64,000 nt of DNA from an uncultured Clostridia bacterium (lineage in GTDB: Bacteria; Bacillota; Clostridia; Oscillospirales; Acutalibacteraceae), in NCBI GenBank assembly GCA_947624285.1, contig CANQJS010000003.1, forward strand, positions 1 through 64,000, given 5' to 3'. Made by a program: the position numbers and the translations under genes. Below the pieces are notes generated by a model, which did no database searches, was not told the DNA's origin, and saw nothing but the letters and a program-made list of their open reading frames with translations. Positions 5,632 through 26,483 of this stretch are shown here, in pieces. Positions within the stretch are counted from its first letter, which is position 1, and every line of letters starts with the position of its first letter.

Positions 5632-5660
5632 GAATAATCCCTCCTTCCTTTGATAATTGA

Positions 5661-5855: not shown

Positions 5856-6230
5856 ATGACATATAAAATATTTCTTAAGGATTTAGGCAATAAGCTTAAA
5901 TATCAGAGAAAAAATCTAGGTCTTACTCAGGGCGCTCTCGTTGAAAAAATTAATAAAGGTTTAACCGAAAATGATGATGATTATTTGTCAGATAAACAAC
6001 TTTCCAGAGTAGAATGCGGCAAAAGTGTTACGAGATTAGATAAATTTGTAAAATGGTCACTTGCATTAGGAAAAACACCGGATTATTTTTTATTAGGTAT
6101 TGATTATAGTGATGACAGCAAGGATGGAAAAATACTTCAAATTTGCGGATGTCTTAAAAATTGCAGCAATGATGAAATAGATACCGTCTTGATGCTAGTG
6201 AAGGGAATGAATTCAAAGAATAGCAACTAA
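5856..6230 (+). CDS. XRE-family helix-turn-helix regulator
   Basis: A 124-residue protein with an N-terminal HTH_XRE domain (LKYQRKNLGLTQGALVEKI, then SDKQLSRVECGKS) at residues 12-75, then a short acidic and Cys-containing tail. Start ATG 5856 has a GAGGTG site 6 bases upstream. It is the first gene of the plus-strand unit leading into the AgrA- and AgrC-like genes and faces the agrD operon across a 225-bp intergenic region, so it is well placed to repress or activate both divergent transcripts. Confidence 0.85.
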   Translation: MTYKIFLKDLGNKLKYQRKNLGLTQGALVEKINKGLTENDDDYLSDKQLSRVECGKSVTRLDKFVKWSLALGKTPDYFLLGIDYSDDSKDGKILQICGCLKNCSNDEIDTVLMLVKGMNSKNSN

Positions 6231-6321
6231 AATTTGACAATTTTTTTTAAGTATGGTATATAAAACATATCTTACAGTTGGTGTGTTTTATATACTTTTT
6301 ATTTTTAGAAAGGCATTATTT

Positions 6322-7047: not shown

Positions 7048-7049
7048 CT

Positions 7050-9136: not shown

Positions 9137-12100
9137 ATGAAATTTTTATTTGATAGACAAAGAAATAAATACAAAATACTGATGAAATATATATCAGTTT
9201 TTCTTGCGTTCATTATGGCATTCAATGGAGGAATAATATCCTGCTATGCCATGGGTGCAGGAGTCCCTGAAAAACTTGAGATGGAGAGTATTCTGTCAGA
9301 CTACATCAAAGATGTTATTAATTTAGATGGTGTAAAGTCCATCGACACGGAGAAGTCAACTGATACGGAACTCTATCTCAATATGAAAGATGATTCTACA
9401 ACAGTTTATACTTTCTCTGAACCGGTTACATATATAGATGAAAACGGCGATTTGAAGTGCAAAGGCAATGATATCATTAAGCAAACCAATAAAGAGAATA
9501 AAGATTTAGGGTATAACTACAGCAACAATCAAAACGATTATCGTATAAACATATCAACAGATTCTTCAAAAGGAATTCTTGTTGAATATGGCGATAATTC
9601 TTTCTCTCTTGCTCCAATTAGTGATAGTTCTGTAAACGGAAGTGTTTCCAATGGCAAAACTGAATTCGAATATGCTGATTTGCTTGGTGAAAACACATTA
9701 ATGAAGTATTTTCTTCAAATCAACGGAATTAAAGAGGAAATAATTCTTGACGATAAAACCGATACAAACATATTTAAATCAATTCTTAAAACAAAGGACT
9801 GCGCTCCATTTATTAATGAAGACGGAAGTATATCATTGATAAGTTCCCAAACCGGTAAAGAAGTGCAGCGTTTTGTTGCGCCATTTGCTTATGATAATGC
9901 ATATGTTGCTGGCATAGCTGATGAACATTTTTGTTCGGAATGTAAGTATATTCTTGAAGAAAATGCCGAAAATGAATATACCATTTCGGTTGTAGTTTCT
10001 AAAAATTGGCTTAATAGTAGCAATACCATATACCCTGTAACTATAGACCCGTCAACAAGCAATATATATAATTACTATGATGCAAGTGTTTATTCGCTTA
10101 AACCAACGACTTCATATGGTAGCAGTACCACATGCAGTATAGGGTATAATCCTGAATATGGTGCGGGAAGAATATACACCCAATTTACTTTACCTAACGA
10201 TATATCAAAATATGCAACCATTAATAGTGCGCGGCTTTGGGAAAGTGAACTCACTGGTGGGACTACTTCACTTATAGTTACTCCATATATTGTTACGAGT
10301 ACTTGGTCTGAATCTTCTATAACTTGGGATAAACAACCATCATATGATGAAAATGTACCTCTTGAATCTAAAACTCTTAATGGGGATAGCATGGATGATC
10401 CATATGATTGTAATATATATAGTTTTAATATTAAAAATGCAGTTGAAGAATGGATTAAAGGAACTGCTAATTACGGACTTGTTTTTATAAGCAGCGCTGA
10501 GGACAATAGCAGAAGCATTTGGAAGACATTAGCTGCAAAAAACTACATTTCTACTGATTATCGGCCCTATACAGTTATAAACTATGTTAATGATGTTAGA
10601 GCGCCTCGGATTACAAATGTTACTGGTAATCCGACAGAATGGACTAATGAAGATGTTACTTTAACTATAAATGCAACGGACGATGTTTATTCAGCAGTGT
10701 CAGGAATTGCTTCTTATAGTTTTTCAAAATCGGAAGAGGGGTATTCTGCTCAAAGCTCACCTTCGCTTACAGTTTCCTCTAATGGCAAATACTATGCGCG
10801 TGTTTGTGATAACGCCGGCAATATTTCAACGGCTACGGTTATAAATGTAGATAAGATAGATAAAGTTAAGCCTTTAATTTCTAGTGTTACCGGGAATCCA
10901 ACCAGCAGGACAAAAGACGATGCTGTTTTAGTAGCGTCAGCAACAGATGAACTTTCGGGAATTGCTGAGTATAGTTTCTCTGAAACAGAGGGAGAATATA
11001 GCTGGCAAAGCGATAGTAAAAAAAGCTTAAGTGAAAATGGTGTAGTGTATGTTTCTGTGAAAGATAAAGCAGGCAATATTTCAAATGAAACCACTGTAAA
11101 TGTAAATAAAATAGACAAAAGCAAACCCTCCGACCCTGTTATTACAGGAAATGCCAATGAGTGGACAAAAGAAGATGTAACTTTAACCGCTGTTTCGGTG
11201 GATGAAGAATCAAAGGTGGTTGAATACAGCTTCTCCACAAGTTCAAGTACATATTCTTGGCAAGCAGAACCATATAAAACATTTTCATCCAACTGTACAG
11301 TATACCCTTCATTTAAAGATAGTGATGGAGAGATTTCATCAGCTGAACCTGTAAAAATCAGTAAAATAGATAAGACATGCCCCAGTAAACCATCTGTCTC
11401 GGCAGAATATGGAGATGAAAAAGTAATACTAACGGTTACTTCTGCTGACTCTGACTCGGGTTTGTCAGAATATAGTTTCTCTGAAACAGAGGGAGTATAC
11501 AACTGGCAAAAAAATAATAATATGGAATTTTCAGAAAACACTTTAGTGTATATTTATGCTAAAGATGTGGTTGGAAATATTTCTCCCGTATGCACTAAAA
11601 AAATATATATTGGTGACAAAACAGCGCCTACAATCCAAGGAATAACGGGTAACGCTACAAAATGGACTAATTCCAGTGTTACTTTAAATGTAGTTGGTGC
11701 GTCAGATGATGAAACCGGTCTTAGTTCAACAGCATACAGTTTCAGCTCATCTGAAAATGCATATAGTTGGCAAGGTTCAAATTCTAAATCTTTTTCATCT
11801 AACCAAACAGTCTATATTTATGTTAGAGATGATGCCGGGAATATTGCAAATGTAGGAACGGTCGTTATTGACAAGATAGATAAAACTTCTCCAACTATAA
11901 ACAGAATAACACGCAATGATAAAAATGGGATTACGACTCTAACAATAGAGGCGAGTGATTCTCAATCAGGTGTTACTAATTATAGTTTAAGTGACAGACC
12001 GTATAATCAAAACGGAAATTCCGTGTCATTTCCTACCGATAAATATAATTATGTATATATTCAAGTAAAAGATGGAGCGGGAAATACAACAACGAGGCTT

Positions 12101-15100
12101 TATACATTTTATTATCCACAATGTTATAAAGAAAACGGCAGGGTATATGCGTATAATCCAAACCCCAGCACAAATGATACGATTTATTACAGAACTTCGC
12201 GAGTTATATTCACTTCCTGGGAGACATATTCAAAAAGCGGTTTTGTTTCACCAAACGAAAAAACTTATTTGACTTATATTAAGCCATGGATAATGTTGAG
12301 TAGAGATGTAGATAATGCCAAAACATTCTATACAGACGACATCCCCACACTAAGAGATACATATGTTGCCGGAAAATACGAAGAATCAGAGATTGATGCT
12401 ACATTTACTTATAAAGATGTTAGTTTTGATTTTATGAGAACATTCGACAATAAAGAAAATAGCTGGTTCTTCTCTGTGAATAGTTCGTTGAAGCATGATA
12501 TATCTGCAAACCGAATAGATGCAGTTTTTCCTGATAATACAAAGATATCATTTTTACCTAAAACACTGACATCTTATTATGATCTTCATGGAGATTATAT
12601 AATTAATGCAAACAAAGATCCCGATGGAAAAATTCTTTCTTATGATTTAGAACTGAATGGGCAGAAATACATATATAATAGTGAAGGAACACTTGTAGCC
12701 GTTGAAAGCAAAAACGGTGCAAAAATTGCTTTCAACAGATATGATGATAAAATTGTTGCTTTTGACGGAGCGGGAAGAGAATATATATTAAATCTCTTTG
12801 CCGAGAAAAACATTACATCAATAACTGATCCGTCTGGTGGGAATATAAAATATACCTATAATTCTAACAGTAGACTTTCAAAAATAGTTGATCAGGCCGG
12901 AATAACTTTAAATACATATAATTATGATTCAAAAGGCAGAGTGATAAAATGTAACGATAAATCCTTTACCTACGATTCAAGCAACAGAGTAACAAGTCAA
13001 GTATCAGACAGTGGTGCTTATATCAATTATACTTATTCGGGCAACACAGTTAATTCTGTTACATCAACAGAGCAAACAACTGTTGTAACTTATAATGAGT
13101 ATGGGGATATAACATACACAGAGGATGAATATGGAAACTCTGTGACTTTCACATATGACGATAAGCGGCATTTAATAAAAAAAGAAACAAGCGGCGGGGA
13201 AACTACAAACTACGCTTATGGTTCAAATGGGATGTTGCAAAGTGAATCGAGTGATAATCTTGTAGTGAATTACAGTTATGATGAGTCTGATAATTGCGTA
13301 CGAAAAGAAACAATAACTCCTGATTATAATAAATATGAATATTATGAATATGACGACATGGGGAATGTCACTACTTTTGCAAAACTCAAAACAGATTTTA
13401 ACGGAGAAGCCCCATTGAAATATGATAAATCTTTGAACTGTTTTGATGTATTTGAATATGTATATGCTGATGGCTTGGTTTCAAGTTATTATAACAAAAC
13501 AGATGATGAAACGGGGGCGTATTCATATGATTTATATGGGAACAGAATAAAGTCAGAAGTTATAAAAAATGGAATGACGAAAACAGAAACAAGTATTTAT
13601 GATGTGAACGGAAATTTATTGTCTCTTACAAAAGATGAGAAAACCTGTGTCTATATATATGATGATGCAGGAAGAATACTTCTGAAAAATGATAATGGAA
13701 AATGTACAAGAATGCTCTATGACGAAGTCGGAAGAATGATTCAAAAAATCAACCCCGAAGACTATGATGCATCTAAAGATGGATTACCCGAAAGCAATAC
13801 TTATTCTGATGTTAAAGCAGGACATACTTATGTTTATGCTGATAATGGAACATTAACAAGTGAGACAAATCATCTTGGAAGGACAACAAAATATTTTTAT
13901 AACGATATTGGCTCAAAAATTCGTGAAGAGTTTGATATTTATAAAATGTATTATCTTAATCACGGAGAACTTTATCAAATAAAAATTGCAAATACAACCA
14001 TTGTTTCTTATGACTATGACGACAATTATAATTTAATGTCAGAAAGTTATGCCAATGATGATGTTATCCGTTATGTTTATAATGAAAACGGTAATTTAAT
14101 TGAACAGTATCACAACAGTAATGCATTGCCATATGTTACCTATACTTATGATGATAACGACAGGGTAATTGAAAAAATAAACACAGATGTTTCGTTGAAA
14201 TATATATATGGAGCTGATGGCAAAATTAGTGTATATAATACTGATAATGATTCTCTTGTGCAGTCATATTTTGAAAGCGAGGAGGACAACAACTCAAAAA
14301 TGTTGACTGTGTTCGAAAATCATTTCGGCTCGGATTATAATTCCGTCATAAAAACGAATTCCATTTCATACAACTTTGCAGATAAAGGTTTTGAGTACAA
14401 TTTCACTGGAAGCACAGACACAATTACATCGGCTGTTATTAAGAATATAAGTGGAAGTAAAATCATTTTATTAGATTACACTTATGATGATAGTGGAAAT
14501 ATCATTAACAAGTTATATTCATATGGCAATGACTCACTTAATTTTTCTGCCCAGTATGATTCTGAAAGCAGAATTATTTCAAGTAGCAATGGTTCTATAA
14601 GTAGAAATTATACTTATGATGCAAATGGTCAACTGATTGGTGTAAGAGGTAGTGATTATTCAGCCTCATATGAGTACGATTCAAGAGGTAACATAACTTC
14701 AAAAACTGTAAACGGAGTAAAAACCTCTTTCGGCTATTCAAATACAGGTTGGAAAGATGTACTTTACGCTGTTGACGATGTTGAACTCACATATGACGCA
14801 AACGGAAATTTGTTGACATATGGAGAAAAAGAACACACATGGAACAGCGGCAGGCTACTTCAGAGTGTTTCTGATGGAAATAATGCTTATACATATAAAT
14901 ATGATGAAAAGGGTGCCAGAATCTCAAAGACGGTAAATGGGGAAAACACATATTTTAATTACTGTAACGGCAGGCTTGTCGCTCAATCTGACGGTAATAA
15001 TAAAATATATTTTCAGTATGATTTTTCAGGGCTTCCGATAGGATTTATATATAACGATACTCAGTATTATTACATCACAAATCAGATGAACGATGTAATC

Positions 15101-15397
15101 GGAATAACAAATGAAAGCGGATCGCTGCTTGCTAAGTATTCCTATGACGAATGGGGAAATTTACTTTCCATAACAGCCGATTCATCTAATATTGCTTTAG
15201 CAAATGCAAATCCATTAAGATATAGAGGATATTATTTTGATGCCGAAACAGGGTATTATTGCATAAATTCACGGTATTATAATCCCAAACTATGCAGATT
15301 TATCAGTCCCGATTACACAACCAATCAGGATAAAGAATCTGTATATGGTTTAAACACATTTGCGTATGCCAAAAATAATCCAGTAAACAAAGCATAA
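9137..15397 (+). CDS. Large secreted DNRLRE / Ig-like / RHS-YD repeat protein ending without a toxin tip
   Basis: A 2086-residue protein with a good AAGGAG ribosome site. Order of parts: signal peptide (hydrophobic about 17-36, ending near CYAMGAG); a lead region; a DNRLRE-like beta domain at about 300-490; six or so Ig-like modules at about 495-990, each with YSFS, a Trp-Gln segment and VKDxAGNIS motifs; a YVAGKYEE conserved segment near 1075; YD/RHS repeats at about 1180-2000; and the RHS core signature NPLRYRGYYFDAETGYY at about 2030. It stops at NPVNKA, where related proteins continue into a variable toxin. It was therefore probably truncated when the neighbouring core was inserted, and may act as a tip-less shell. 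RHS shells enclose and deliver C-terminal toxins to neighbouring cells. Confidence 0.88.
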   Translation: MKFLFDRQRNKYKILMKYISVFLAFIMAFNGGIISCYAMGAGVPEKLEMESILSDYIKDVINLDGVKSIDTEKSTDTELYLNMKDDSTTVYTFSEPVTYIDENGDLKCKGNDIIKQTNKENKDLGYNYSNNQNDYRINISTDSSKGILVEYGDNSFSLAPISDSSVNGSVSNGKTEFEYADLLGENTLMKYFLQINGIKEEIILDDKTDTNIFKSILKTKDCAPFINEDGSISLISSQTGKEVQRFVAPFAYDNAYVAGIADEHFCSECKYILEENAENEYTISVVVSKNWLNSSNTIYPVTIDPSTSNIYNYYDASVYSLKPTTSYGSSTTCSIGYNPEYGAGRIYTQFTLPNDISKYATINSARLWESELTGGTTSLIVTPYIVTSTWSESSITWDKQPSYDENVPLESKTLNGDSMDDPYDCNIYSFNIKNAVEEWIKGTANYGLVFISSAEDNSRSIWKTLAAKNYISTDYRPYTVINYVNDVRAPRITNVTGNPTEWTNEDVTLTINATDDVYSAVSGIASYSFSKSEEGYSAQSSPSLTVSSNGKYYARVCDNAGNISTATVINVDKIDKVKPLISSVTGNPTSRTKDDAVLVASATDELSGIAEYSFSETEGEYSWQSDSKKSLSENGVVYVSVKDKAGNISNETTVNVNKIDKSKPSDPVITGNANEWTKEDVTLTAVSVDEESKVVEYSFSTSSSTYSWQAEPYKTFSSNCTVYPSFKDSDGEISSAEPVKISKIDKTCPSKPSVSAEYGDEKVILTVTSADSDSGLSEYSFSETEGVYNWQKNNNMEFSENTLVYIYAKDVVGNISPVCTKKIYIGDKTAPTIQGITGNATKWTNSSVTLNVVGASDDETGLSSTAYSFSSSENAYSWQGSNSKSFSSNQTVYIYVRDDAGNIANVGTVVIDKIDKTSPTINRITRNDKNGITTLTIEASDSQSGVTNYSLSDRPYNQNGNSVSFPTDKYNYVYIQVKDGAGNTTTRLYTFYYPQCYKENGRVYAYNPNPSTNDTIYYRTSRVIFTSWETYSKSGFVSPNEKTYLTYIKPWIMLSRDVDNAKTFYTDDIPTLRDTYVAGKYEESEIDATFTYKDVSFDFMRTFDNKENSWFFSVNSSLKHDISANRIDAVFPDNTKISFLPKTLTSYYDLHGDYIINANKDPDGKILSYDLELNGQKYIYNSEGTLVAVESKNGAKIAFNRYDDKIVAFDGAGREYILNLFAEKNITSITDPSGGNIKYTYNSNSRLSKIVDQAGITLNTYNYDSKGRVIKCNDKSFTYDSSNRVTSQVSDSGAYINYTYSGNTVNSVTSTEQTTVVTYNEYGDITYTEDEYGNSVTFTYDDKRHLIKKETSGGETTNYAYGSNGMLQSESSDNLVVNYSYDESDNCVRKETITPDYNKYEYYEYDDMGNVTTFAKLKTDFNGEAPLKYDKSLNCFDVFEYVYADGLVSSYYNKTDDETGAYSYDLYGNRIKSEVIKNGMTKTETSIYDVNGNLLSLTKDEKTCVYIYDDAGRILLKNDNGKCTRMLYDEVGRMIQKINPEDYDASKDGLPESNTYSDVKAGHTYVYADNGTLTSETNHLGRTTKYFYNDIGSKIREEFDIYKMYYLNHGELYQIKIANTTIVSYDYDDNYNLMSESYANDDVIRYVYNENGNLIEQYHNSNALPYVTYTYDDNDRVIEKINTDVSLKYIYGADGKISVYNTDNDSLVQSYFESEEDNNSKMLTVFENHFGSDYNSVIKTNSISYNFADKGFEYNFTGSTDTITSAVIKNISGSKIILLDYTYDDSGNIINKLYSYGNDSLNFSAQYDSESRIISSSNGSISRNYTYDANGQLIGVRGSDYSASYEYDSRGNITSKTVNGVKTSFGYSNTGWKDVLYAVDDVELTYDANGNLLTYGEKEHTWNSGRLLQSVSDGNNAYTYKYDEKGARISKTVNGENTYFNYCNGRLVAQSDGNNKIYFQYDFSGLPIGFIYNDTQYYYITNQMNDVIGITNESGSLLAKYSYDEWGNLLSITADSSNIALANANPLRYRGYYFDAETGYYCINSRYYNPKLCRFISPDYTTNQDKESVYGLNTFAYAKNNPVNKA

Positions 15398-18300
15398 GAA
15401 AAAGACATTTTGATAAGAAAGTGAAGGAGAGATAAAATGAAATACTTGTATGATAGGGAAAAGAACAAATATAGATTGCCGACAAAAATATTATCAGTAT
15501 TTTTGGCAATGATTATGGCATTTAGCCTGGAAACAATAGCCTGTTATGCGATGGGGACAGGAATGGTCAAAGCATACGCAGCTGATGAATACTTAGGGAT
15601 TACTGCAAGTGATTCATATGTTGCGGGTAAATACGAAGAAACTAATACGGAAGCTTCATTTACATATAGGGGAGTTACCTTTGATTTTGTCCGTTCATTC
15701 AACAATAAAGACAACGAGTGGTTTTACTCGGTAAACAGTAAAGCGGTATATAATAAAAACAATGATTGTATAAATGCGGTTCTGCCTGACGGAGATAGTG
15801 CTGCATTTGAGGCGGTTTCATCGAAAACATATGAAGATCCTCACAGTGACAATAAAATAAATGTTGAGAGAGATGCAAGCGGCGCCGTCATATCGTGCAG
15901 TTTAGATTTGGGTGGAACGATATATAATTATGGAACGGATGGCAGTCTTGTCTCAGTGTCAGATAAAAACGGTTCCGCCATCATGTTTGCAAGATATTCA
16001 GATAGAATCGTTGTTTCCGACGGAGCAGACAGGGCATATACAGTTGCTTTGAATTCTGATAAGAATATAGCATCAATAACAGATCCTGCCGGAGGTGTAA
16101 TTGGTTATGCATATGATGCAAACGGCAGACTCGCCGAAGTAACGGATCAGAGCGGAGTGGTTTTAGATACATACAGTTACGATACTTATGGTCGGATCGT
16201 AAGGAATAATGATATTTCAATAGTATATGATACCGATAGCAGAATCACAAAAGAGACATATGACAGCGGCGCATACAATGCATATACTTACGACGGAAAC
16301 ACGGTTGATACCGTTACCTCTACTGAGCGCTCTTCATCCGCTACATATAACGAATACGGGGATGTATTGATTTCCACAGACGATGAGGGCAATACGACCT
16401 CATATACCTATGACAGTAAAAGAAGAGTAGTCAAAGAGGAAAACTCAGACGGAGATACTGTTAACAACACTTATGATGAAAACGGTAATCTTTTGAAATC
16501 GGAAAACGGGGAAGATGATTATACAAATTATCTTTATGACGCAAACGGTAACTGCATACGGGAAGAAGTCTTCAATGATTCCAAAACAAGCTACAGGTAC
16601 TATGTATATGATAATAAAGGCAATGTACTTGTAAGTGCAGAGCTTAAAGAAGATTACAAGGGCGATGTTCCTTCTGAGTATGATGAGAATCTGACATGCT
16701 TCGATTTTATCAAAAACGAATATTCAAACGGATTGCTCGCAAGTTCTTTTGACAGCAAAGAAAACGAAACTGTCAGCTATACTTATGATGAATACGGAAA
16801 TGAAATCAAATCCGAAACCACATCCGTAAAGGATGAAGAAACAACCGTCACCACAGTTATCAATACATATGACAAACTGGGCAATATGCTTTTCTCACAA
16901 AAAGGCGATGAGAAATCGGCATATGTATATGATGCTGCAGGCAGGACATTGCTTGCAAATGAAAATGGTAAATATACAAGGACCTTGTATGATAATCTCG
17001 GCAGAGTAGTTCAGGAAATCTCTCCCGAGGACTATGACGCGTCTAAAGACGGATTGCCGGAAAGCAATTCATATTCAGATTCAAAAGCGGGTCATACATA
17101 CAAGTATGCCGCAAACAGAACTTTGACAAGCGAAACAAACCGATTGGGCAAAACCACAAAATATATTTACAATGATATCGGCTCAAAAGTACGGGAAGAA
17201 TTTGATATATACAAGTTCTATTATCTCAACCACGGGGAGCTTTATCAGGTAAAGGTAGCAAATGCAACAACTGTGTCATACAATTATGACAACAAGTTCA
17301 AGTTAACATCCGAAAGCTATGCAAACGATGATGTTATCCGCTATGCATACAATGAGCACGGAGATATTGCGGCGCAGTATCATAACAGTAACGCAAAGCC
17401 CTATGTAACATATACCTACAACGAGGATAATGAGTTAATTGAAAAGGTAAATACCGATTCCGGGTTAAAGTATGTGTATGGAGAAAATAATCAGGTAAGC
17501 GTTTACAAAACGACCGATGATTCACTTGTACAGTCATATGTTGAAACAGAGACTGAGGCTGATGAAGAAACAAATACCGCAGCATATACTACTGTAGAAG
17601 AAAAGCATTTCGGCACAAACTATACATCGGTCATAAAAGAAAATGATCTTACTTTTAAAGCGGGAAGCAAGAGCGTTGAATGTGTGTATTCAACGGATGA
17701 TGAAGGTTTGACCGCATCAGCTCTAATAAAGAGCAGCAACGGGACAGCGCTTTCTCTGACATATTCTTATGATGACGACGGTAATATCACAAGCAAGCTA
17801 TATTCATATGACAACAAGACGCTTGACTTTGTAAACGAATATGACGAAGACGGAAAAATCATTGCAAGCGGGAAAGGCAGTGTTTCTCTGCATTACACAT
17901 ATGATGATAATGATCAGCTCATCGGAGTGCAGGGAGAAGATTACGCGGCAAGCTATTCCTACGACAGTCGAGGCAATCTGACAGCAAAGAATATCAACGG
18001 AGAGGAAACAACTTACACTTATGCAAGTTTCGGCTGGAAGGACCTTCTTGTTGCAGTTGATGATGTCGAACTCACATATGACGCAAACGGGAATGTGCTC
18101 ACTTACGGTGATAAGGAATACACCTGGAACAGCGGCAGACAGCTTGAAAGCATCACGGACGGGGCAAATACCTATTCCTACAAATACAATGAAGACGGAA
18201 TCAGAGCGTCAAAGACCGTAAACGGAAAGACAACATATTTCAATACTTCGGGAGGAGTAATATCCTCACAGTATGACGGAAGCAACAGGCTTTATTTCCA

Positions 18301-18610
18301 GTATGGTAACTCCGGAGAACCTGTAGGCTTTGTATATAACGGGACGCCTTATCTTTACATCACAAACCAGATGAACGATGTAATCGGGATAACAAATGAA
18401 AGCGGAACACTGCTTGCCGAATATTTCTATGATGAATGGGGCAGGCTGCTGTCCATAAAGGCTTCCGGCTTTAACAAAACCTTGGCAGAGATAAATCCGA
18501 TAAGATACCGCGGTTATTACTACGATAATGAAAGCGGCTACTATTATCTGCAAAGCCGTTATTATGACCCTGTTATTTGTAGGTTCATTAATGCGGATGA
18601 TGTTGAAATA
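15342..18610 (+). repeat. 3,269-bp direct repeat, copy 1 (RHS core)
   Basis: Identical at every position I compared to 20498-23766 (constant offset 5,156), and the two encoded proteins are identical over 1058 residues. It includes the last 17 codons and stop of the upstream RHS gene, the ribosome site, and the whole RHS gene from start codon to the end of the RHS core signature. Lack of divergence means a very recent duplication or gene conversion. Confidence 0.93.
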
Positions 18611-19147
18611 GTCAGTGTTTCGAAAGATAATTTAGCTGGCATTAATCTTTTTGCGTATTGCAATAGTAATCCTGTTAATAATGTGGATTATTTTGGCGAA
18701 TGGCTTGCAAGGGTTATTTGCGCTCTTGCAGGGGCGGCTATTTTAGGAACATTAGCTGTATTAATTTGTAATATTTTAAAACTATTTGTGAATGTAAGTG
18801 ACAAAACAGCAAAAATTATTGCGATTGCTTGCGCGGCACTGGGTGGGGTTATTGGAGCGATATTAGGTGTAAGGTTTTTAACAAAATATGCTCCTAACTT
18901 AGCAAAAGCAATTAATAAAATTGAAAAAGAAAAATTTTCGATTAAAGCAATAGGACCCAATGCTTCTGGGAATATATTTGGCATTGTTATATCTAAAACA
19001 TTAATAATTATGCTACACGCACCACATCCAAATAAGGGGGAAAATTATTTTCACATACAAGTTGAAGTGAAAATTGGTAAAACCCAAAAAACAATCTATA
19101 AAAAGGCAATACTGAATGTTAGTAAAAATTGGCGTTGGAAGAAGTGA
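15437..19147 (+). CDS. RHS-repeat polymorphic toxin, tip variant 1
   Basis: A 1236-residue secreted RHS/YD-repeat protein. It has a signal peptide (about 15-48, CYAMGTGMVKAYAA), a conserved YVAGKYEE segment at about 60, YD repeats to about 1010, and the core signature (RYRGYYYDNESGYYY, then CRFINADD) ending at residue 1058. After that comes a 178-residue tip not shared with the second copy. The tip starts with NLFAYCNSNPVNN, has two hydrophobic segments (about 1090-1115 and 1125-1145) and a basic, beta-rich end (HAPHPNKGENYFHIQVEV, ending NWRWKK). I do not recognise the tip; by position it should be the toxin, with the next gene its immunity factor. GAAGGAG lies 7 bases before ATG. Confidence 0.88.
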   Translation: MKYLYDREKNKYRLPTKILSVFLAMIMAFSLETIACYAMGTGMVKAYAADEYLGITASDSYVAGKYEETNTEASFTYRGVTFDFVRSFNNKDNEWFYSVNSKAVYNKNNDCINAVLPDGDSAAFEAVSSKTYEDPHSDNKINVERDASGAVISCSLDLGGTIYNYGTDGSLVSVSDKNGSAIMFARYSDRIVVSDGADRAYTVALNSDKNIASITDPAGGVIGYAYDANGRLAEVTDQSGVVLDTYSYDTYGRIVRNNDISIVYDTDSRITKETYDSGAYNAYTYDGNTVDTVTSTERSSSATYNEYGDVLISTDDEGNTTSYTYDSKRRVVKEENSDGDTVNNTYDENGNLLKSENGEDDYTNYLYDANGNCIREEVFNDSKTSYRYYVYDNKGNVLVSAELKEDYKGDVPSEYDENLTCFDFIKNEYSNGLLASSFDSKENETVSYTYDEYGNEIKSETTSVKDEETTVTTVINTYDKLGNMLFSQKGDEKSAYVYDAAGRTLLANENGKYTRTLYDNLGRVVQEISPEDYDASKDGLPESNSYSDSKAGHTYKYAANRTLTSETNRLGKTTKYIYNDIGSKVREEFDIYKFYYLNHGELYQVKVANATTVSYNYDNKFKLTSESYANDDVIRYAYNEHGDIAAQYHNSNAKPYVTYTYNEDNELIEKVNTDSGLKYVYGENNQVSVYKTTDDSLVQSYVETETEADEETNTAAYTTVEEKHFGTNYTSVIKENDLTFKAGSKSVECVYSTDDEGLTASALIKSSNGTALSLTYSYDDDGNITSKLYSYDNKTLDFVNEYDEDGKIIASGKGSVSLHYTYDDNDQLIGVQGEDYAASYSYDSRGNLTAKNINGEETTYTYASFGWKDLLVAVDDVELTYDANGNVLTYGDKEYTWNSGRQLESITDGANTYSYKYNEDGIRASKTVNGKTTYFNTSGGVISSQYDGSNRLYFQYGNSGEPVGFVYNGTPYLYITNQMNDVIGITNESGTLLAEYFYDEWGRLLSIKASGFNKTLAEINPIRYRGYYYDNESGYYYLQSRYYDPVICRFINADDVEIVSVSKDNLAGINLFAYCNSNPVNNVDYFGEWLARVICALAGAAILGTLAVLICNILKLFVNVSDKTAKIIAIACAALGGVIGAILGVRFLTKYAPNLAKAINKIEKEKFSIKAIGPNASGNIFGIVISKTLIIMLHAPHPNKGENYFHIQVEVKIGKTQKTIYKKAILNVSKNWRWKK

Positions 19148-19155
19148 AATTAAAA

Positions 19156-19749
19156 ATGGCTGATAATTTGAAAATATTTATAGATGAACATAAGAATAAA
19201 ATCGTATTTTCTTCTGTTGATAATTTCAGCTGTAAATTTGTGCTTTATTTAATCAAAAAAACCTTTATTGGAGAACGCGTATTATTTATTGCTTCAGGTT
19301 TATTAGATACAATTAAAGAAATACAAAGTCATCTTAATGCAAATTCAACTTTTCTGAATATAAATGACGGGAAAAAGTTATTTGTTAAAAAAATGCCGAA
19401 ATTGTATTCATTTATTGAAAACGATTCTTTGCTGCAATATGCCGCTAATGAATGGGTCTCTACCATATATGAGCAAAGGACATTACTTTTTTTGGACGAT
19501 AAAATTGTATTTGAAATCAATTCAATATTAAACCAAGATGAATTTAGCGATGAACTTATCAGCGAAATTATTAAAAAAAATTATAAATGCAAAATAGAGA
19601 GCGTTCCCGAATCAGACTATCATTATACATTTATGATAAAATCTGATAATATTTATTTTCCAAAAATAATGAAAAATATAATAAAAAATCCATTGGCATC
19701 CGATTGCAAAATAGTATATGTTAACAATGAGTCCGAATGTTATAAATAA
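19156..19749 (+). CDS. Candidate immunity protein for RHS tip 1
   Basis: A 197-residue soluble-looking protein starting 8 bases after the RHS stop codon, with a GGAAGAAG site before ATG 19156. No domain recognised; it alternates predicted strands and helices and has a Lys-rich N-terminus (NLKIFIDEHKNK). Immunity is inferred only from its place immediately behind a variable RHS tip, the standard polymorphic-toxin arrangement. It could instead be a second toxin or an accessory protein. Confidence 0.6.
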   Translation: MADNLKIFIDEHKNKIVFSSVDNFSCKFVLYLIKKTFIGERVLFIASGLLDTIKEIQSHLNANSTFLNINDGKKLFVKKMPKLYSFIENDSLLQYAANEWVSTIYEQRTLLFLDDKIVFEINSILNQDEFSDELISEIIKKNYKCKIESVPESDYHYTFMIKSDNIYFPKIMKNIIKNPLASDCKIVYVNNESECYK

Positions 19750-19863
19750 ACTCAATAAACCAAACATTGATATAATCTTGTCTCTCGGAGGCTTAATTTT
19801 TCTTAAACACCCCACTGCAAATTTGACTTTTCCCCGCAGCAATATTAAGAAAAAGGTGTGATA

Positions 19864-20355
19864 ATGGTGTTATACAAATTTTTATCTATTAATAATTTTC
19901 TTCCTGTTATAATGGGCTTTATTTTTATTTTGCTATTCCTTTTAATCGGTTTGATTTGTATACGCACATTGATTAAAGAAAAATCTCCGTTTAAAACTCA
20001 TTTCCTATTATATATCTTTTTTGCATTGTTGATATTTGTGTCCTTTAATAGGATTGTTGGAGCTGTAAGCGACTTTGTTTACCAGTATAACAGTTTTATA
20101 AAACCATATAACGAAGGGGAATATTTAACTGTTGAGGGCAGCATCGACAATTATTATTCTGTTGCTATGGATACCTCATTTACTGTAAATGATATTTATT
20201 TTGAATATAATCCATATTATCCGTTTGATCTTGGCTTTAATAATAGAAGTGAATACATAAAAAACGGAAACAAGGTAAGAATTGAATATGTTTATGTGGA
20301 AGAAACGGACGAAGGAACAGAAAGAAATGTTATTATGAAAATCGAAAAATTATGA
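19864..20355 (+). CDS. Small membrane protein, second candidate immunity gene of tip 1
   Basis: A 163-residue protein with two hydrophobic segments (about 12-35 and 48-68) and a C-terminal acidic, beta-rich domain probably outside the membrane (NDIYFEYNPYYPF, then NKVRIEYVYVEE). ATG 19864 follows AAAAAGGTG. A membrane immunity protein would fit a tip with hydrophobic segments. No family recognised. It is separated from the previous gene by 114 bp that hold no gene. Confidence 0.55.
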   Translation: MVLYKFLSINNFLPVIMGFIFILLFLLIGLICIRTLIKEKSPFKTHFLLYIFFALLIFVSFNRIVGAVSDFVYQYNSFIKPYNEGEYLTVEGSIDNYYSVAMDTSFTVNDIYFEYNPYYPFDLGFNNRSEYIKNGNKVRIEYVYVEETDEGTERNVIMKIEKL

Positions 20356-20374
20356 TAATTGAAACATAAACATA

Positions 20375-20479
20375 GGGACTATTCTTTGTGTTGTTGACGA
20401 CTTTATATCTTTTGATAACGCATCGGATGAGTTCAATGAATATTTCAAGTCACTGTATGCCAACAGCCATCCCGTCTGA
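20375..20479 (+). pseudogene. Orphan C-terminal fragment of an immunity-like protein
   Basis: A 34-codon open stretch ending in TGA that reads VVDDFISFDNASDEFNEYF and has no start codon or ribosome site. The strong amphipathic helix composition looks like the end of a real protein. It lies between the tip-1 immunity genes and the second RHS core, where polymorphic-toxin loci keep displaced tip/immunity remnants. The family is not identified. Confidence 0.5.
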
Positions 20480-20497
20480 TTTATCGGTAAATAAAAT

Positions 20498-23400
20498 TAT
20501 ATGGTTTAAACACATTTGCGTATGCCAAAAATAATCCAGTAAACAAAGCATAAGAAAAAGACATTTTGATAAGAAAGTGAAGGAGAGATAAAATGAAATA
20601 CTTGTATGATAGGGAAAAGAACAAATATAGATTGCCGACAAAAATATTATCAGTATTTTTGGCAATGATTATGGCATTTAGCCTGGAAACAATAGCCTGT
20701 TATGCGATGGGGACAGGAATGGTCAAAGCATACGCAGCTGATGAATACTTAGGGATTACTGCAAGTGATTCATATGTTGCGGGTAAATACGAAGAAACTA
20801 ATACGGAAGCTTCATTTACATATAGGGGAGTTACCTTTGATTTTGTCCGTTCATTCAACAATAAAGACAACGAGTGGTTTTACTCGGTAAACAGTAAAGC
20901 GGTATATAATAAAAACAATGATTGTATAAATGCGGTTCTGCCTGACGGAGATAGTGCTGCATTTGAGGCGGTTTCATCGAAAACATATGAAGATCCTCAC
21001 AGTGACAATAAAATAAATGTTGAGAGAGATGCAAGCGGCGCCGTCATATCGTGCAGTTTAGATTTGGGTGGAACGATATATAATTATGGAACGGATGGCA
21101 GTCTTGTCTCAGTGTCAGATAAAAACGGTTCCGCCATCATGTTTGCAAGATATTCAGATAGAATCGTTGTTTCCGACGGAGCAGACAGGGCATATACAGT
21201 TGCTTTGAATTCTGATAAGAATATAGCATCAATAACAGATCCTGCCGGAGGTGTAATTGGTTATGCATATGATGCAAACGGCAGACTCGCCGAAGTAACG
21301 GATCAGAGCGGAGTGGTTTTAGATACATACAGTTACGATACTTATGGTCGGATCGTAAGGAATAATGATATTTCAATAGTATATGATACCGATAGCAGAA
21401 TCACAAAAGAGACATATGACAGCGGCGCATACAATGCATATACTTACGACGGAAACACGGTTGATACCGTTACCTCTACTGAGCGCTCTTCATCCGCTAC
21501 ATATAACGAATACGGGGATGTATTGATTTCCACAGACGATGAGGGCAATACGACCTCATATACCTATGACAGTAAAAGAAGAGTAGTCAAAGAGGAAAAC
21601 TCAGACGGAGATACTGTTAACAACACTTATGATGAAAACGGTAATCTTTTGAAATCGGAAAACGGGGAAGATGATTATACAAATTATCTTTATGACGCAA
21701 ACGGTAACTGCATACGGGAAGAAGTCTTCAATGATTCCAAAACAAGCTACAGGTACTATGTATATGATAATAAAGGCAATGTACTTGTAAGTGCAGAGCT
21801 TAAAGAAGATTACAAGGGCGATGTTCCTTCTGAGTATGATGAGAATCTGACATGCTTCGATTTTATCAAAAACGAATATTCAAACGGATTGCTCGCAAGT
21901 TCTTTTGACAGCAAAGAAAACGAAACTGTCAGCTATACTTATGATGAATACGGAAATGAAATCAAATCCGAAACCACATCCGTAAAGGATGAAGAAACAA
22001 CCGTCACCACAGTTATCAATACATATGACAAACTGGGCAATATGCTTTTCTCACAAAAAGGCGATGAGAAATCGGCATATGTATATGATGCTGCAGGCAG
22101 GACATTGCTTGCAAATGAAAATGGTAAATATACAAGGACCTTGTATGATAATCTCGGCAGAGTAGTTCAGGAAATCTCTCCCGAGGACTATGACGCGTCT
22201 AAAGACGGATTGCCGGAAAGCAATTCATATTCAGATTCAAAAGCGGGTCATACATACAAGTATGCCGCAAACAGAACTTTGACAAGCGAAACAAACCGAT
22301 TGGGCAAAACCACAAAATATATTTACAATGATATCGGCTCAAAAGTACGGGAAGAATTTGATATATACAAGTTCTATTATCTCAACCACGGGGAGCTTTA
22401 TCAGGTAAAGGTAGCAAATGCAACAACTGTGTCATACAATTATGACAACAAGTTCAAGTTAACATCCGAAAGCTATGCAAACGATGATGTTATCCGCTAT
22501 GCATACAATGAGCACGGAGATATTGCGGCGCAGTATCATAACAGTAACGCAAAGCCCTATGTAACATATACCTACAACGAGGATAATGAGTTAATTGAAA
22601 AGGTAAATACCGATTCCGGGTTAAAGTATGTGTATGGAGAAAATAATCAGGTAAGCGTTTACAAAACGACCGATGATTCACTTGTACAGTCATATGTTGA
22701 AACAGAGACTGAGGCTGATGAAGAAACAAATACCGCAGCATATACTACTGTAGAAGAAAAGCATTTCGGCACAAACTATACATCGGTCATAAAAGAAAAT
22801 GATCTTACTTTTAAAGCGGGAAGCAAGAGCGTTGAATGTGTGTATTCAACGGATGATGAAGGTTTGACCGCATCAGCTCTAATAAAGAGCAGCAACGGGA
22901 CAGCGCTTTCTCTGACATATTCTTATGATGACGACGGTAATATCACAAGCAAGCTATATTCATATGACAACAAGACGCTTGACTTTGTAAACGAATATGA
23001 CGAAGACGGAAAAATCATTGCAAGCGGGAAAGGCAGTGTTTCTCTGCATTACACATATGATGATAATGATCAGCTCATCGGAGTGCAGGGAGAAGATTAC
23101 GCGGCAAGCTATTCCTACGACAGTCGAGGCAATCTGACAGCAAAGAATATCAACGGAGAGGAAACAACTTACACTTATGCAAGTTTCGGCTGGAAGGACC
23201 TTCTTGTTGCAGTTGATGATGTCGAACTCACATATGACGCAAACGGGAATGTGCTCACTTACGGTGATAAGGAATACACCTGGAACAGCGGCAGACAGCT
23301 TGAAAGCATCACGGACGGGGCAAATACCTATTCCTACAAATACAATGAAGACGGAATCAGAGCGTCAAAGACCGTAAACGGAAAGACAACATATTTCAAT

Positions 23401-23766
23401 ACTTCGGGAGGAGTAATATCCTCACAGTATGACGGAAGCAACAGGCTTTATTTCCAGTATGGTAACTCCGGAGAACCTGTAGGCTTTGTATATAACGGGA
23501 CGCCTTATCTTTACATCACAAACCAGATGAACGATGTAATCGGGATAACAAATGAAAGCGGAACACTGCTTGCCGAATATTTCTATGATGAATGGGGCAG
23601 GCTGCTGTCCATAAAGGCTTCCGGCTTTAACAAAACCTTGGCAGAGATAAATCCGATAAGATACCGCGGTTATTACTACGATAATGAAAGCGGCTACTAT
23701 TATCTGCAAAGCCGTTATTATGACCCTGTTATTTGTAGGTTCATTAATGCGGATGATGTTGAAATA
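20498..23766 (+). repeat. 3,269-bp direct repeat, copy 2 (RHS core)
   Basis: Second copy of 15342-18610. It begins abruptly inside a stranded copy of the last codons of the first RHS gene (YGLNTFAYAKNNPVNKA and stop) and ends after the codons for NADDVEI, where the two tips diverge. Confidence 0.93.
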
Positions 23767-24384
23767 ACAAATTCATCAAAGGATTTAAAAAAAGGATTAA
23801 ATCTATTTTGTTACTGTAATAATAATTCGGTAAATAATGAGGATATTTTAGGAAACTTTTCTTCAAACTCAATTATTCAAATGTTTAATAACTTTGTAAT
23901 ATTTATTAAGGAAAAAATCAACTATATTATCAAAGAAAAACTTGGTATAACAAAGAAAGGTAATTATATATATATTAAAAGAAGCACGGTGGCTAATGCA
24001 ATAAATTTTGTTTTAACTATAGGAAATGTAATTAAGTCAGCTATTAAGAACGCAGCAATTAAAACTGGGTGTAAAATAATATATAATTATGCTAAAAGTA
24101 ACTCAAAAAAATTTGCGGAATTTTTAACAAAGAAACACATTGATAAGATAGCCGCATTGTTAGAAAAAATACTGACAGTCACAACAAAATCATTTGCAAT
24201 TTGTGTGGGAAGAAAATTGGCAATGAGTTTCGGTACTAATTATATTAAGAATGCTATTTTAAAGAATTTTCCTGTACTGGAATGGATAAATGCTTTATTA
24301 TCTCCAGGAGCATTGATAGCTTTTGTATTGGATATAATTACTGATAAAAAGATAGATCAAAAAATTACTATTAAAGTGAGGTAA
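20593..24384 (+). CDS. RHS-repeat polymorphic toxin, tip variant 2
   Basis: A 1263-residue protein whose first 1058 residues are the same as those of the preceding RHS protein. The remaining 205 residues form a different tip: after NLFCYCNNNSVNNEDILG come several amphipathic or hydrophobic helices (NFVIFIKEKINYIIKEKLG, AINFVLTIGNVIKSAIKNAA) and a hydrophobic hairpin near the end (LLSPGALIAFVLDII). The Lys-rich helical character could suit membrane activity, but I recognise no toxin family. The gene 9 bases downstream encodes a membrane protein and is the likely immunity partner. Confidence 0.88.
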   Translation: MKYLYDREKNKYRLPTKILSVFLAMIMAFSLETIACYAMGTGMVKAYAADEYLGITASDSYVAGKYEETNTEASFTYRGVTFDFVRSFNNKDNEWFYSVNSKAVYNKNNDCINAVLPDGDSAAFEAVSSKTYEDPHSDNKINVERDASGAVISCSLDLGGTIYNYGTDGSLVSVSDKNGSAIMFARYSDRIVVSDGADRAYTVALNSDKNIASITDPAGGVIGYAYDANGRLAEVTDQSGVVLDTYSYDTYGRIVRNNDISIVYDTDSRITKETYDSGAYNAYTYDGNTVDTVTSTERSSSATYNEYGDVLISTDDEGNTTSYTYDSKRRVVKEENSDGDTVNNTYDENGNLLKSENGEDDYTNYLYDANGNCIREEVFNDSKTSYRYYVYDNKGNVLVSAELKEDYKGDVPSEYDENLTCFDFIKNEYSNGLLASSFDSKENETVSYTYDEYGNEIKSETTSVKDEETTVTTVINTYDKLGNMLFSQKGDEKSAYVYDAAGRTLLANENGKYTRTLYDNLGRVVQEISPEDYDASKDGLPESNSYSDSKAGHTYKYAANRTLTSETNRLGKTTKYIYNDIGSKVREEFDIYKFYYLNHGELYQVKVANATTVSYNYDNKFKLTSESYANDDVIRYAYNEHGDIAAQYHNSNAKPYVTYTYNEDNELIEKVNTDSGLKYVYGENNQVSVYKTTDDSLVQSYVETETEADEETNTAAYTTVEEKHFGTNYTSVIKENDLTFKAGSKSVECVYSTDDEGLTASALIKSSNGTALSLTYSYDDDGNITSKLYSYDNKTLDFVNEYDEDGKIIASGKGSVSLHYTYDDNDQLIGVQGEDYAASYSYDSRGNLTAKNINGEETTYTYASFGWKDLLVAVDDVELTYDANGNVLTYGDKEYTWNSGRQLESITDGANTYSYKYNEDGIRASKTVNGKTTYFNTSGGVISSQYDGSNRLYFQYGNSGEPVGFVYNGTPYLYITNQMNDVIGITNESGTLLAEYFYDEWGRLLSIKASGFNKTLAEINPIRYRGYYYDNESGYYYLQSRYYDPVICRFINADDVEITNSSKDLKKGLNLFCYCNNNSVNNEDILGNFSSNSIIQMFNNFVIFIKEKINYIIKEKLGITKKGNYIYIKRSTVANAINFVLTIGNVIKSAIKNAAIKTGCKIIYNYAKSNSKKFAEFLTKKHIDKIAALLEKILTVTTKSFAICVGRKLAMSFGTNYIKNAILKNFPVLEWINALLSPGALIAFVLDIITDKKIDQKITIKVR

Positions 24385-24392
24385 ATATACAA

Positions 24393-25115
24393 ATGGCGAA
24401 AATATGTATCAAAAATAATTCCGTTGATAAAAATCTCATTGTTTGTATAAGCGGCAAAACAATTTTTGTCAAGCCCGATGAGACGGAATATTTTGAAACG
24501 GACAATACAAATTTACATATTATTGCGGAATACGACATTAAAACTAAAATCAAGGTCAATTTTCTGTCCGTTTGGCTTTCGACAGCGCTGAACACAGACG
24601 CGAAATGCAAAATAAACTGCGTTTGTGAGTTTGATTATCTTTGCACCGAAGGTGAAAATCGGCTTGATTTTTGCGATAAAGAGCGCAGAATCAATAATTC
24701 AAATATTTGTTTATGCTTCGCGGAAACGGACGCTTCGCGAAATGATATCAAAAACATAAATTACAATTATAAAAAAGCGGACAAACCGATACTGAAACAC
24801 AGTTTGACGCAATTAGTATTTTTATCGGCTTTGCCTTTCATAATTGCCGGAATAATCTATGAAATCTTGGATTTTAAAATAGGCATGCTGTTGGCGATCT
24901 TGATTTTGGTATTCGTGGGCTTTATTCCGTCGCTGAAATCAATCAAGGCATTCAATAAAATCTGCAAAGACTGTGACTCAAATATAAAATCATACGCTCA
25001 AAACGAGAATGACACGGAAGAGCTTGAAGATATACTTACGGATATCGCAAACGATAAGGAAACCTCGGGAACAACAAAATTCTTTGCAAAATTGATTAAG
25101 AAAATAATAGATTAA
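24393..25115 (+). CDS. Membrane protein, candidate immunity for RHS tip 2
   Basis: A 240-residue protein. Residues 1-130 form a Cys-containing cytoplasmic-type domain (KIKVNFLSVWLSTALNTDA, CKINCVCEFDYLC). Two adjacent transmembrane segments (about 140-180, LSALPFIIAGIIYEI and GMLLAILILVFVGFI) follow, then an acidic tail. ATG 24393 lies 8 bases after the RHS stop. No family recognised; the assignment rests on position and on the fit between a membrane protein and a hydrophobic tip. Confidence 0.55.
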   Translation: MAKICIKNNSVDKNLIVCISGKTIFVKPDETEYFETDNTNLHIIAEYDIKTKIKVNFLSVWLSTALNTDAKCKINCVCEFDYLCTEGENRLDFCDKERRINNSNICLCFAETDASRNDIKNINYNYKKADKPILKHSLTQLVFLSALPFIIAGIIYEILDFKIGMLLAILILVFVGFIPSLKSIKAFNKICKDCDSNIKSYAQNENDTEELEDILTDIANDKETSGTTKFFAKLIKKIID

Positions 25116-25176
25116 GGAAATCGCACGGGCAGTGCGGCAAGCAGATTAAAACCTTGACTTTTACAGGAGGTAAGTT

Positions 25177-25959
25177 ATGAAAATTCGTAAATTTTTCAAG
25201 ATTTTTAAAAAGGAAATGGAAAAGGGCTATAAAGAAGAAAAGGAAAGGCAGGATCAAAACAAAGCCGCATTTATTGCCGAAAACGAAAAATCAATAAGCG
25301 ATTTTCTCGCGCGGCACAAATTCTTAACAGTGCTTATAGTTTTGATTCCCATTATCTTAATTATCGGAATAATCAATTCCTTTCTTCCCATCGATGTTTA
25401 TGATGATATAAACGGAATGTCTCCTGTAAGCAATATTGAATATTACAGCGAGAAATACAAGGTCGGAAATCATACGGTTGCCGTTTACGCCTGCCTCGAC
25501 GCCGATGGCTCAGAAAACGATACCGAGCAATTCGTTATAAATGTTGCGGAAATCAAAGGTCCTTTAAAAAACAAGTATTACTTATACGCTAACGATTATA
25601 TATCCGATGAAGAAATTTTTAATCCTGATTACAGCTACATTGTTGATTACCCTTCGTATGAGGTAAAAAGCGGTTCAAAATATTACGGATCGGTTTACGC
25701 GGGAATTGCGCCGCCCGATTGCGAATCAATCACCATTGGCGGGGTAAAAGCCGAAATGGAAAAGATGACATTTGATTTTAAAGGGAAAACCGTCGATTTC
25801 TACTTATACTATTGCATAATTGAGCAAGATGAATATCCGGAACATATATCTGTTATTTGTCAAAAAACAGACGGAGAGTCGCTTTCCGTGTCGTCCGATT
25901 TTGAATCGGATTCAGATATTGCATCCAAAGGTAATTCTAAAGTCACGGTAATCGGTTAA
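25177..25959 (+). CDS. Single-pass membrane protein of the RHS locus
   Basis: A 260-residue protein with an AGGAGG site before ATG 25177. A Lys/Glu-rich cytoplasmic N-terminus (1-45) is followed by one transmembrane helix (LTVLIVLIPIILIIGIINSF, about 49-68) and a roughly 190-residue extracellular beta-rich domain with a Ser/Asp-rich end. It may be a further immunity or accessory protein of the second RHS unit; no family is recognised. Confidence 0.55.
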   Translation: MKIRKFFKIFKKEMEKGYKEEKERQDQNKAAFIAENEKSISDFLARHKFLTVLIVLIPIILIIGIINSFLPIDVYDDINGMSPVSNIEYYSEKYKVGNHTVAVYACLDADGSENDTEQFVINVAEIKGPLKNKYYLYANDYISDEEIFNPDYSYIVDYPSYEVKSGSKYYGSVYAGIAPPDCESITIGGVKAEMEKMTFDFKGKTVDFYLYYCIIEQDEYPEHISVICQKTDGESLSVSSDFESDSDIASKGNSKVTVIG

Positions 25960-26028
25960 GCGCAAAAAACACAAGGACGATTTTTGTGTTGCCAAAAATA
26001 AATTACTATCAAAAAGGCGGTGAGCCGA

Positions 26029-26483
26029 TTGCTTAAATTTAGTTTGGGCTTGTTAAAAATCATAGATTATTTATCTTTGCTATTATTTATACCTGTTTTA
26101 GTTACAGATAAAATATTATTTATGCCAATTGATCTTTATAATGCATCAATAGAATATTTGTGTGGTATTCAAGCAATTGTTGCTATTTTAGTTACATTTA
26201 TATTTTTAATAATAGCAAGATTAAAAAGATTGAATTATATGATAATAATTCATTAAATCAAGTATTTCACAACATTATATTTATCATAAAACAAAATGGA
26301 AAATTTACTGTTATACTTGTTTCCATAACGCTGATAATTTGTATAATTATCGGATTAACGCGATTTAAAGATTATGCAACCGGATATATTATTGTATGTA
26401 TCATAAATTCAATTTCAGTTCTTTACTGTAATGCTATACAAAAACATAATAAAATTATTCTGATATGGCAAAATAGAACATAG
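26029..26483 (+). pseudogene. Frameshifted small membrane protein gene
   Basis: Reading from TTG 26029 (after AGGCGGTGAG) gives two hydrophobic segments and then a stop at 26256. The next frame, open to 26483, continues with two more hydrophobic segments (FTVILVSITLIICIIIGL and YIIVCIINSISVLYC). Joining them across the A-rich stretch around 26221-26245 gives a roughly 150-residue four-helix membrane protein. It is either a recently broken immunity-type gene or a sequencing or biological slippage case. Confidence 0.5.

What the first reader, a model, noticed from the sequence alone, without database searches (positions are those of the whole stretch)
15342..23766. RHS core duplicated as a 3,269-bp apparently identical direct repeat with two different toxin tips
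15342-18610 and 20498-23766 agree at every place compared, including silent positions, and the encoded proteins agree over 1058 residues. Both copies break at the same codon after the RHS core signature, where two unrelated tips begin. The repeat's left edge lies inside the 3' end of the previous RHS gene, so copy 2 carries a stranded copy of that gene's last 17 codons. This is the footprint expected if a circle or donor with core, tip 1 and immunity genes (5,156 bp) recombined through the core. It is a tip-swapping array caught very soon after the event.
Basis: partly seen in the sequence, partly recalled or inferred. Interest (0 to 1): 0.82.

Follow-up and report, generated by a model that had tools for sequence, protein, structure and literature searches.

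The report
Duplicated toxin-shell gene, two toxin ends
A gut bacterium carries two side-by-side copies of one complete secreted toxin-shell gene, letter-for-letter identical over 3,269 bases but ending in different toxin tips with different neighbouring protection genes; it looks like a clean natural example of a tip-exchange process already proposed for such toxins.

Summary
Each copy holds a ribosome-binding site, start codon, apparent signal peptide and the whole 1,058-residue RHS core, then switches to a different tip.

The 56 bp before copy 2 are not a stranded gene-1 end from a fresh breakpoint. Sequence on both sides of that edge (3' end of an immunity-like gene, spacer, RHS tail) is collinear with a second place in the same contig, C3:115847-115677, 151 of 172 columns identical. 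So that junction looks older than the duplication, and both edges read as limits of homology, as expected for homologous recombination through the tail-plus-core block. Jackson 2009 proposed a circular intermediate; Poole 2011 and Koskiniemi 2014 proposed duplication then recombination.

A copied immunity pair in the contig differs at 29 of 1,637 sites, against 0 of 3,269 here: the event is comparatively recent, or the copies were homogenised. In 21 repeat pairs from relatives only short core ends are shared. The array lies beside conjugative-element genes. Known kind, unusually clean case; no read-level check was possible.

The parts
9137..15397 (+). gene 1: long RHS gene, 2,086 aa (DNRLRE domain, OmpL47-type repeats, RHS core); ends ...GLNTFAYAKNNPVNKA and stop, without a toxin tip
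15342..18610 (+). repeat copy 1: 56-bp RHS tail, 39-bp intergenic stretch with ribosome-binding site, complete RHS core (1,058 codons)
15437..19147 (+). gene 2: short-form RHS gene, 1,236 aa, core plus tip 1
18611..19144 (+). tip 1 (178 residues): homologous linker, helical stretch, strand-rich end; no Pfam family at its cut-off and no PDB sequence match; AlphaFold model of low confidence (mean pLDDT 56.5)
19129..19749 (+). presumed immunity gene for tip 1 (by position only)
19858..20355 (+). second presumed immunity gene for tip 1, hydrophobic N-terminus (by position only)
20391..20480 (+). 3' end of an immunity-like gene (imm3) whose complete 237-codon frame lies at G000:C3:115756-116466 (-); the join to the tip-1 module is inferred to lie in 20356-20390
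20481..20497 (+). spacer between imm3 end and RHS tail, also present at C3:115.7 kb (-)
20498..23766 (+). repeat copy 2, identical to copy 1
20593..24384 (+). gene 3: short-form RHS gene, 1,263 aa, same core plus tip 2
23767..24381 (+). tip 2 (205 residues): homologous linker then unrelated sequence; no Pfam or PDB sequence match for the part after the linker
24393..25115 (+). presumed immunity gene imm2a; second copy at G000:C3:118979-118260 (-)
25177..25959 (+). presumed immunity gene imm2b; second copy at G000:C3:118198-117416 (-)

Best explanation
This is an array of WapA/Rhs-type polymorphic toxin genes. A 3,269-bp block (RHS tail, ribosome-binding site, complete short-form RHS core) recombined homologously with an identical block that carried another tip and other immunity genes, most simply by a single crossover that brought in tip 1, its immunity genes and the older imm3-end/spacer/tail junction, or by unequal crossing-over between two versions of the locus. 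The identical stretch stops on the left where gene 1 and the imm3 flank differ, and on the right where the tips differ. The result is two complete RHS genes in tandem instead of one gene plus a silent fragment. Shown: the sequence anatomy, the zero differences, and the recurrence of the copy-2 left junction elsewhere in the contig. Inferred: the crossover route, the order of events, the toxin and immunity functions, and expression of both genes.
For: Exact 3,269-bp identity with maximal ends. Copy 2's left flank is collinear across the repeat's left edge with C3:115847-115677 (-), 151 of 172 columns, so no new illegitimate junction is needed at 20497/20498. The right edge lies in the RHS core end, in the same zone in which tips switch in relatives (for example the L041 pair switches after NADDYNYIDK, the window pair after NADDVEI). 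Tip-displacement arrays are common in the genus: TIGR03696 matches in 32 of 80 genomes searched (own included), two or more matches in 19 of these 32. Literature models of recombination through identical cores: PMC2935791, PMC3967940, PMC3150448, PMC4927057 (passages).
Against: No other strain of the species was available, so no single-copy parent was seen; in 80 congeneric genomes the best core match outside the own genome is 76% identical over part of it. Zero differences require a partner core from the same clone or a very close relative, or later homogenisation. The join of the tip-1 module to the imm3 end (within 20356-20390) still needs one illegitimate event at some time. The circle was not observed.
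Confidence: 0.6

Rival explanations
1. Duplication-recombination inside one chromosome: the core with one tip was first duplicated in tandem, and one duplicate then recombined with an orphan tip lying downstream (the model of Poole 2011 and Koskiniemi 2014).
For: Gives the same final order; zero differences fit an intra-clonal event. [quoted passage not shown]
Against: A duplication breakpoint at 20497/20498 is made unlikely by the older copy of that junction at C3:115.7 kb; the breakpoint would have to lie further left, in 20356-20390. Tip 1 and tip 2 were found nowhere else in the own genome, though that genome is 75% complete.
Confidence: 0.2
2. An old tandem pair whose cores are kept identical by repeated gene conversion.
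For: Gene conversion acts on long direct repeats (general knowledge); cannot tell a recent event from homogenisation.
Against: Identity runs to both limits of homology, including 56 bp of RHS tail in copy 2 that is no longer part of an RHS gene. A copied immunity pair in the same contig has 29 of 1,637 differences, so copies are not kept identical everywhere.
Confidence: 0.12
3. Assembly artefact: tip variation between cells, or a chromosome with core-tip 2 plus a separate circle with core-tip 1, drawn as a tandem.
For: The source reads are unknown; a 3,269-bp exact repeat cannot be crossed by short reads (general knowledge). RHS matches tend to sit at contig ends in relatives: 12 of 108 TIGR03696 matches start within 200 bases of a contig's low end, and at least 4 more lie within 200 bases of a known high end (counted by hand; no expectation was computed).
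Against: A false tandem would still need the junction imm3 end/RHS tail, which occurs independently, with differences, at C3:115.7 kb.
Confidence: 0.08

Closest known systems
Rhs tip-displacement arrays of Enterobacteriaceae (Jackson et al. 2009, PMC2935791; passages seen)
   Same: Near-identical core followed by dissimilar tips at one locus, large direct repeats, proposed homologous recombination with a circular intermediate
   Different: There the displaced downstream parts are described as gene fragments; here the downstream copy is a complete ORF with ribosome-binding site and apparent signal peptide. The core here is also a secreted Gram-positive type.
Salmonella rhs main/orphan rearrangement (Koskiniemi et al. 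2014, PMC3967940; passages seen) and the duplication-recombination model (Poole et al. 2011, PMC3150448; Ruhe et al. 2016, PMC4927057; passages seen)
   Same: Recombination through shared core sequence deploys a second tip while keeping the first immunity gene, after a proposed duplication
   Different: There a 522-bp region at 95% identity and a minor subpopulation; here 3,269 bp at 100% in an assembled genome
WapA of Bacillus (recalled, not compared here)
   Same: Secreted Gram-positive YD-repeat protein with variable C-terminus
   Different: No tandem identical shell recalled; not tested
Armatimonadetes bacterium Uphvl-Ar2 genome, CP021424.1 (locus L165)
   Same: Two RHS copies 11.9 kb apart, 4,291 aligned bp at 99.2%, different sequence after the core end
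   Different: Not identical; further RHS fragments lie between the copies; the second copy's core end is read in another frame than the rest of its core

Membership tests
Rhs/WapA polymorphic toxin (YD-repeat protein) | RHS/YD repeats | tested here: met
   PF05593 in all three proteins (E 2.4e-30, 1.3e-31, 2e-31); TIGR01643
Rhs/WapA polymorphic toxin (YD-repeat protein) | RHS-associated core domain just before a variable C-terminus | tested here: met
   TIGR03696 over its cut-off in genes 1, 2 and 3; tips differ after it
Rhs/WapA polymorphic toxin (YD-repeat protein) | secretion signal | not tested
   hydrophobic N-terminus seen by eye only
Rhs/WapA polymorphic toxin (YD-repeat protein) | toxic C-terminal domain | tested here: inconclusive
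   no family at its cut-off and no PDB sequence match; model of tip 1 of low confidence
Rhs/WapA polymorphic toxin (YD-repeat protein) | cognate immunity gene downstream | tested here: inconclusive
   different small genes follow each tip, by position only; no family found at its cut-off
Rhs tip-displacement array | near-identical core, dissimilar tips, at one locus | tested here: met
Rhs tip-displacement array | displaced copy is a core fragment without start | tested here: not met
   copy 2 is a complete 1,263-codon ORF with start codon and ribosome-binding site
Rhs tip-displacement array | recombination through the core by a circular intermediate | not testable with these tools
   needs reads or wet-lab junction assays

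The most novel reading that the evidence does not exclude
The 3,269-bp block is a working switch: through it a 5,156-bp circle with core, tip 1 and immunity genes leaves and re-enters, so that one population holds single-tip, two-tip and circle states. It could be spread by the neighbouring conjugative element and governed by the agr-like genes upstream. Cells with the tandem would deploy two toxins at once, unlike cells with silent orphan tips.
Probability: 0.15. Interest if true: 0.65.

Novelty: new member of a known kind. Interest (0 to 1): 0.42.

Why it matters
Models of how Rhs toxins change tips predict a stage in which two copies of the core lie in tandem with old and new tips. Here such an arrangement can be read base by base, with both ends of the shared block defined and an older version of its left flank held elsewhere in the same contig. 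It gives exact junctions that long reads or PCR can test, and suggests that a displaced copy can stay a complete gene. Identical core repeats may also be hidden by assembly breaks in other genomes (RHS matches at contig ends).

Tried and rejected
Origin of the intergenic stretch from a proC gene: a 27-bp, 92.6% match to a relative's proC end (L031 of G061) looked tempting, but the own genome's proC end is different; taken as chance.

Spacer before copy 2 as a decayed RHS core end (GATTTATCGGT against GATTTATCAGT): 108 of 2,000 simple base shuffles score as high; inconclusive, not used.

Naming the tips: Pfam, NCBIfam and PDB sequence searches gave nothing usable. Relatives of tip 1 in 300 family genomes (32 with a match, own included) align mostly through the linker and helical part; the longest match covers residues 2-177 of 184 at 31% (G034:C6). 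Tip 2 gave 6 of 300, own included, mostly the linker. The AlphaFold model of tip 1 from a single sequence has mean pLDDT 56.5 and pTM 0.32, so no fold search was made. The second structure job was not used.

First scan of genome contigs with the core alone: 19 stretches matched a pattern, none was a relative. The second, with alignment A1, gave 185 relatives of which the best 80 were kept; they served for names and for the repeat census.

A first version of the imm3-remnant query was in the wrong frame and found only itself; the right frame was searched.

Papers: six listings. Passages were read in PMC3967940, PMC4927057, PMC3150448 and PMC2935791; no paper was read whole. By title and start of abstract, none of the papers listed there describes an exact tandem of complete rhs genes with different tips. 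That is no proof of absence.
Full report
What is there. The window is the first 64 kb of a 185,404-bp contig (C3) of a 1.59-Mb, 27-contig, 75%-complete genome. Named relatives found with the RHS core are mostly uncultured gut Clostridia assemblies (best hits), so the host is taken to be such a bacterium; its own name was not given. Three RHS genes lie in a row: gene 1 (9137-15397, 2,086 aa), gene 2 (15437-19147, 1,236 aa) and gene 3 (20593-24384, 1,263 aa). All three have RHS repeats (PF05593) and the RHS-associated core domain (TIGR03696 over cut-off). Gene 1 ends two residues after NPVN, without a tip. Genes 2 and 3 are a short form: their core matches gene 1 at 54% over 1,026 residues, without gene 1's long N-terminal part.

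The repeat. 15342-18610 and 20498-23766 are identical at all 3,269 positions, and the match ends exactly there. The block contains 56 bp of RHS tail, a 39-bp intergenic stretch with a ribosome-binding site, and the first 1,058 codons. The only listed promoter-like site in the 95 bp before the start codon overlaps the start codon, so copy 2 probably depends on transcription from upstream; this is inference. The AT-richer tips (GC 0.27-0.32 against 0.39-0.40 in core bins) fit Rhs tips in general.

The right edge. After ...CRFINADDVEI the copies switch to VSVSKDNLAGINLFAYCNSNPVNN and TNSSKDLKKGLNLFCYCNNNSVNN: a homologous linker and then unrelated tips. In relatives, tips switch in the same zone or shortly after.

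The left edge. The 31-residue frame just left of copy 2 has a second copy in the own genome (92% over 26 residues, E 4.1e-12); besides the own genome, 1 of 80 congeneric genomes gave only a marginal hit, E 0.097. At DNA level 20391-20551 aligns with C3:115847-115677 (minus strand) in 151 of 172 columns, 12 of them gaps; a whole-genome search gives the same place. The alignment runs across the repeat's left edge at 20498. At the second place the 3' end of a complete 237-codon frame (imm3, C3:115756-116466, -) is followed by the same spacer and by a diverged RHS tail, but by no RHS core. So the arrangement imm3-end/spacer/RHS-tail exists twice with differences, whereas the core copies have none. 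If rates are alike, the junction is older than the core duplication. Copy 1's left flank (gene 1 running into the tail) and copy 2's left flank (imm3 running into the tail) are then two versions of one site. The real join between the tip-1 module and the older flank is inferred to lie in 20356-20390, between the stop of the second presumed immunity gene and the start of the alignment.

A relative clock. The pair imm2a-imm2b (24360-25996) has a copy at C3:119012-117376 (-) with 29 differences in 1,637 bp. At that divergence about 58 differences would be expected in 3,269 bp; there are 0. This supports a comparatively recent event but does not exclude gene conversion. It is a single comparison of different kinds of sequence.

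Census. TIGR03696 matches occur in 32 of 80 genomes of the genus set (own included), 108 matches in all; 19 of the 32 have two or more. In 27 fetched relative loci, 21 pairs of shared core ends (at least 100 bp, at least 85% identity, RHS motif inside) were found in 7 loci. They start 42 to 614 bp before the core-end motif, against 3,215 bp in the window; three of the 21 begin at a contig edge and are lower bounds. In a separate scan of 108 loci (relatives and one own stretch; some contigs occur twice; loci L001-L034 and L063-L090 left out), 19 had direct repeats of at least 250 bp at 90% or more. Only L165 (CP021424.1) had one longer than 3 kb: 4,291 bp at 99.2%, with different sequence after the core end and a change of frame in the second copy. 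Short-form RHS frames of about 1,310-1,460 codons also occur in relatives. Long tandem identity is thus rare in what could be seen, but identical repeats break assemblies: 12 of 108 matches begin within 200 bases of a contig's low end, and at least 4 more lie within 200 bases of a known high end (counted by hand; no expectation computed).

Neighbourhood. Upstream are AgrB (4893-5486, -), a LytTR response regulator (6253-7047) and a GHKL histidine kinase (7050-8348). A T4SS coupling protein, a DUF3991/Toprim protein, a tyrosine integrase, a MobL relaxase, TrbL, a VirB4/TraG-like ATPase, an NlpC/P60 protein and a sortase lie downstream, and a large serine recombinase lies at 409-2079. The array therefore probably rides on an integrative conjugative element; its ends were not determined. 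Related kinases lie before RHS genes in three relatives' loci (L058 68% over 427 aa, L059 33%, L055 45% over 114 aa), a related coupling protein (69%) near an RHS array in L106, and a related integrase (60%) in L059. The RHS gene itself is of a different type in L058 and L059 (about 24-26% to genes 2 and 3).

Mechanism. A single crossover between the resident block and an identical block that carried tip 1, its immunity genes and the older imm3/tail flank gives exactly the present order, with both edges at limits of homology. A circle, as in Jackson et al. 2009, or unequal crossing-over between two versions of the locus would both do. Duplication followed by recombination with an orphan tip (Poole 2011, Koskiniemi 2014) gives the same order but no longer needs, and is not helped by, a breakpoint at 20498. 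Zero differences mean that the partner core came from the same clone or a very near relative, or was homogenised later. What cannot be told here is whether one assembled tandem reflects one molecule; reads are needed.

Assessment. A known kind of process, unusually clean in sequence, with an informative older flank elsewhere in the genome. Tip and immunity functions are inferred from position and from the Rhs family; none was shown.

Noticed in passing
G000:C3:115756-120927 (-), beyond the window: Looks like an orphan immunity island: imm2a-imm2b copy (29 of 1,637 differences), imm3, further small genes, and an RHS tail without core; an integrase-like frame lies near at C3:113086-113946 (name from the look of its sequence, not from a search).
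   Followed up: partly
window 26020-26483; G000:C1:142976-143398 (-): A stretch read as two overlapping frames in the window has a 90% homologue on another contig that is one 141-codon frame, perhaps another stray immunity gene.
   Followed up: partly
window 4893-8348: AgrB, LytTR response regulator and GHKL kinase directly upstream of the RHS array; the kinase has relatives before RHS genes in three other loci (L055, L058, L059).
   Followed up: partly
window 27131-49667: Conjugative-element genes (coupling protein, relaxase, integrase, TrbL, VirB4-like, sortase); the RHS array appears to be cargo.
   Followed up: partly
window 50063-56536 (-): 2,157-aa surface protein with 17 SpaA-type stretches and a thioester domain; internal repeats of about 950 bp at 89%.
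   Followed up: no
G000:C3:120992-121270 and 142164-142441: A 279-bp direct repeat at 95% identity, 21 kb apart.
   Followed up: no
L061 (G074:C22): Dense RHS array in a relative: five core-end motifs in 14.2 kb with shared stretches of up to 1,932 bp at 99.4%, cut by the contig end.
   Followed up: partly
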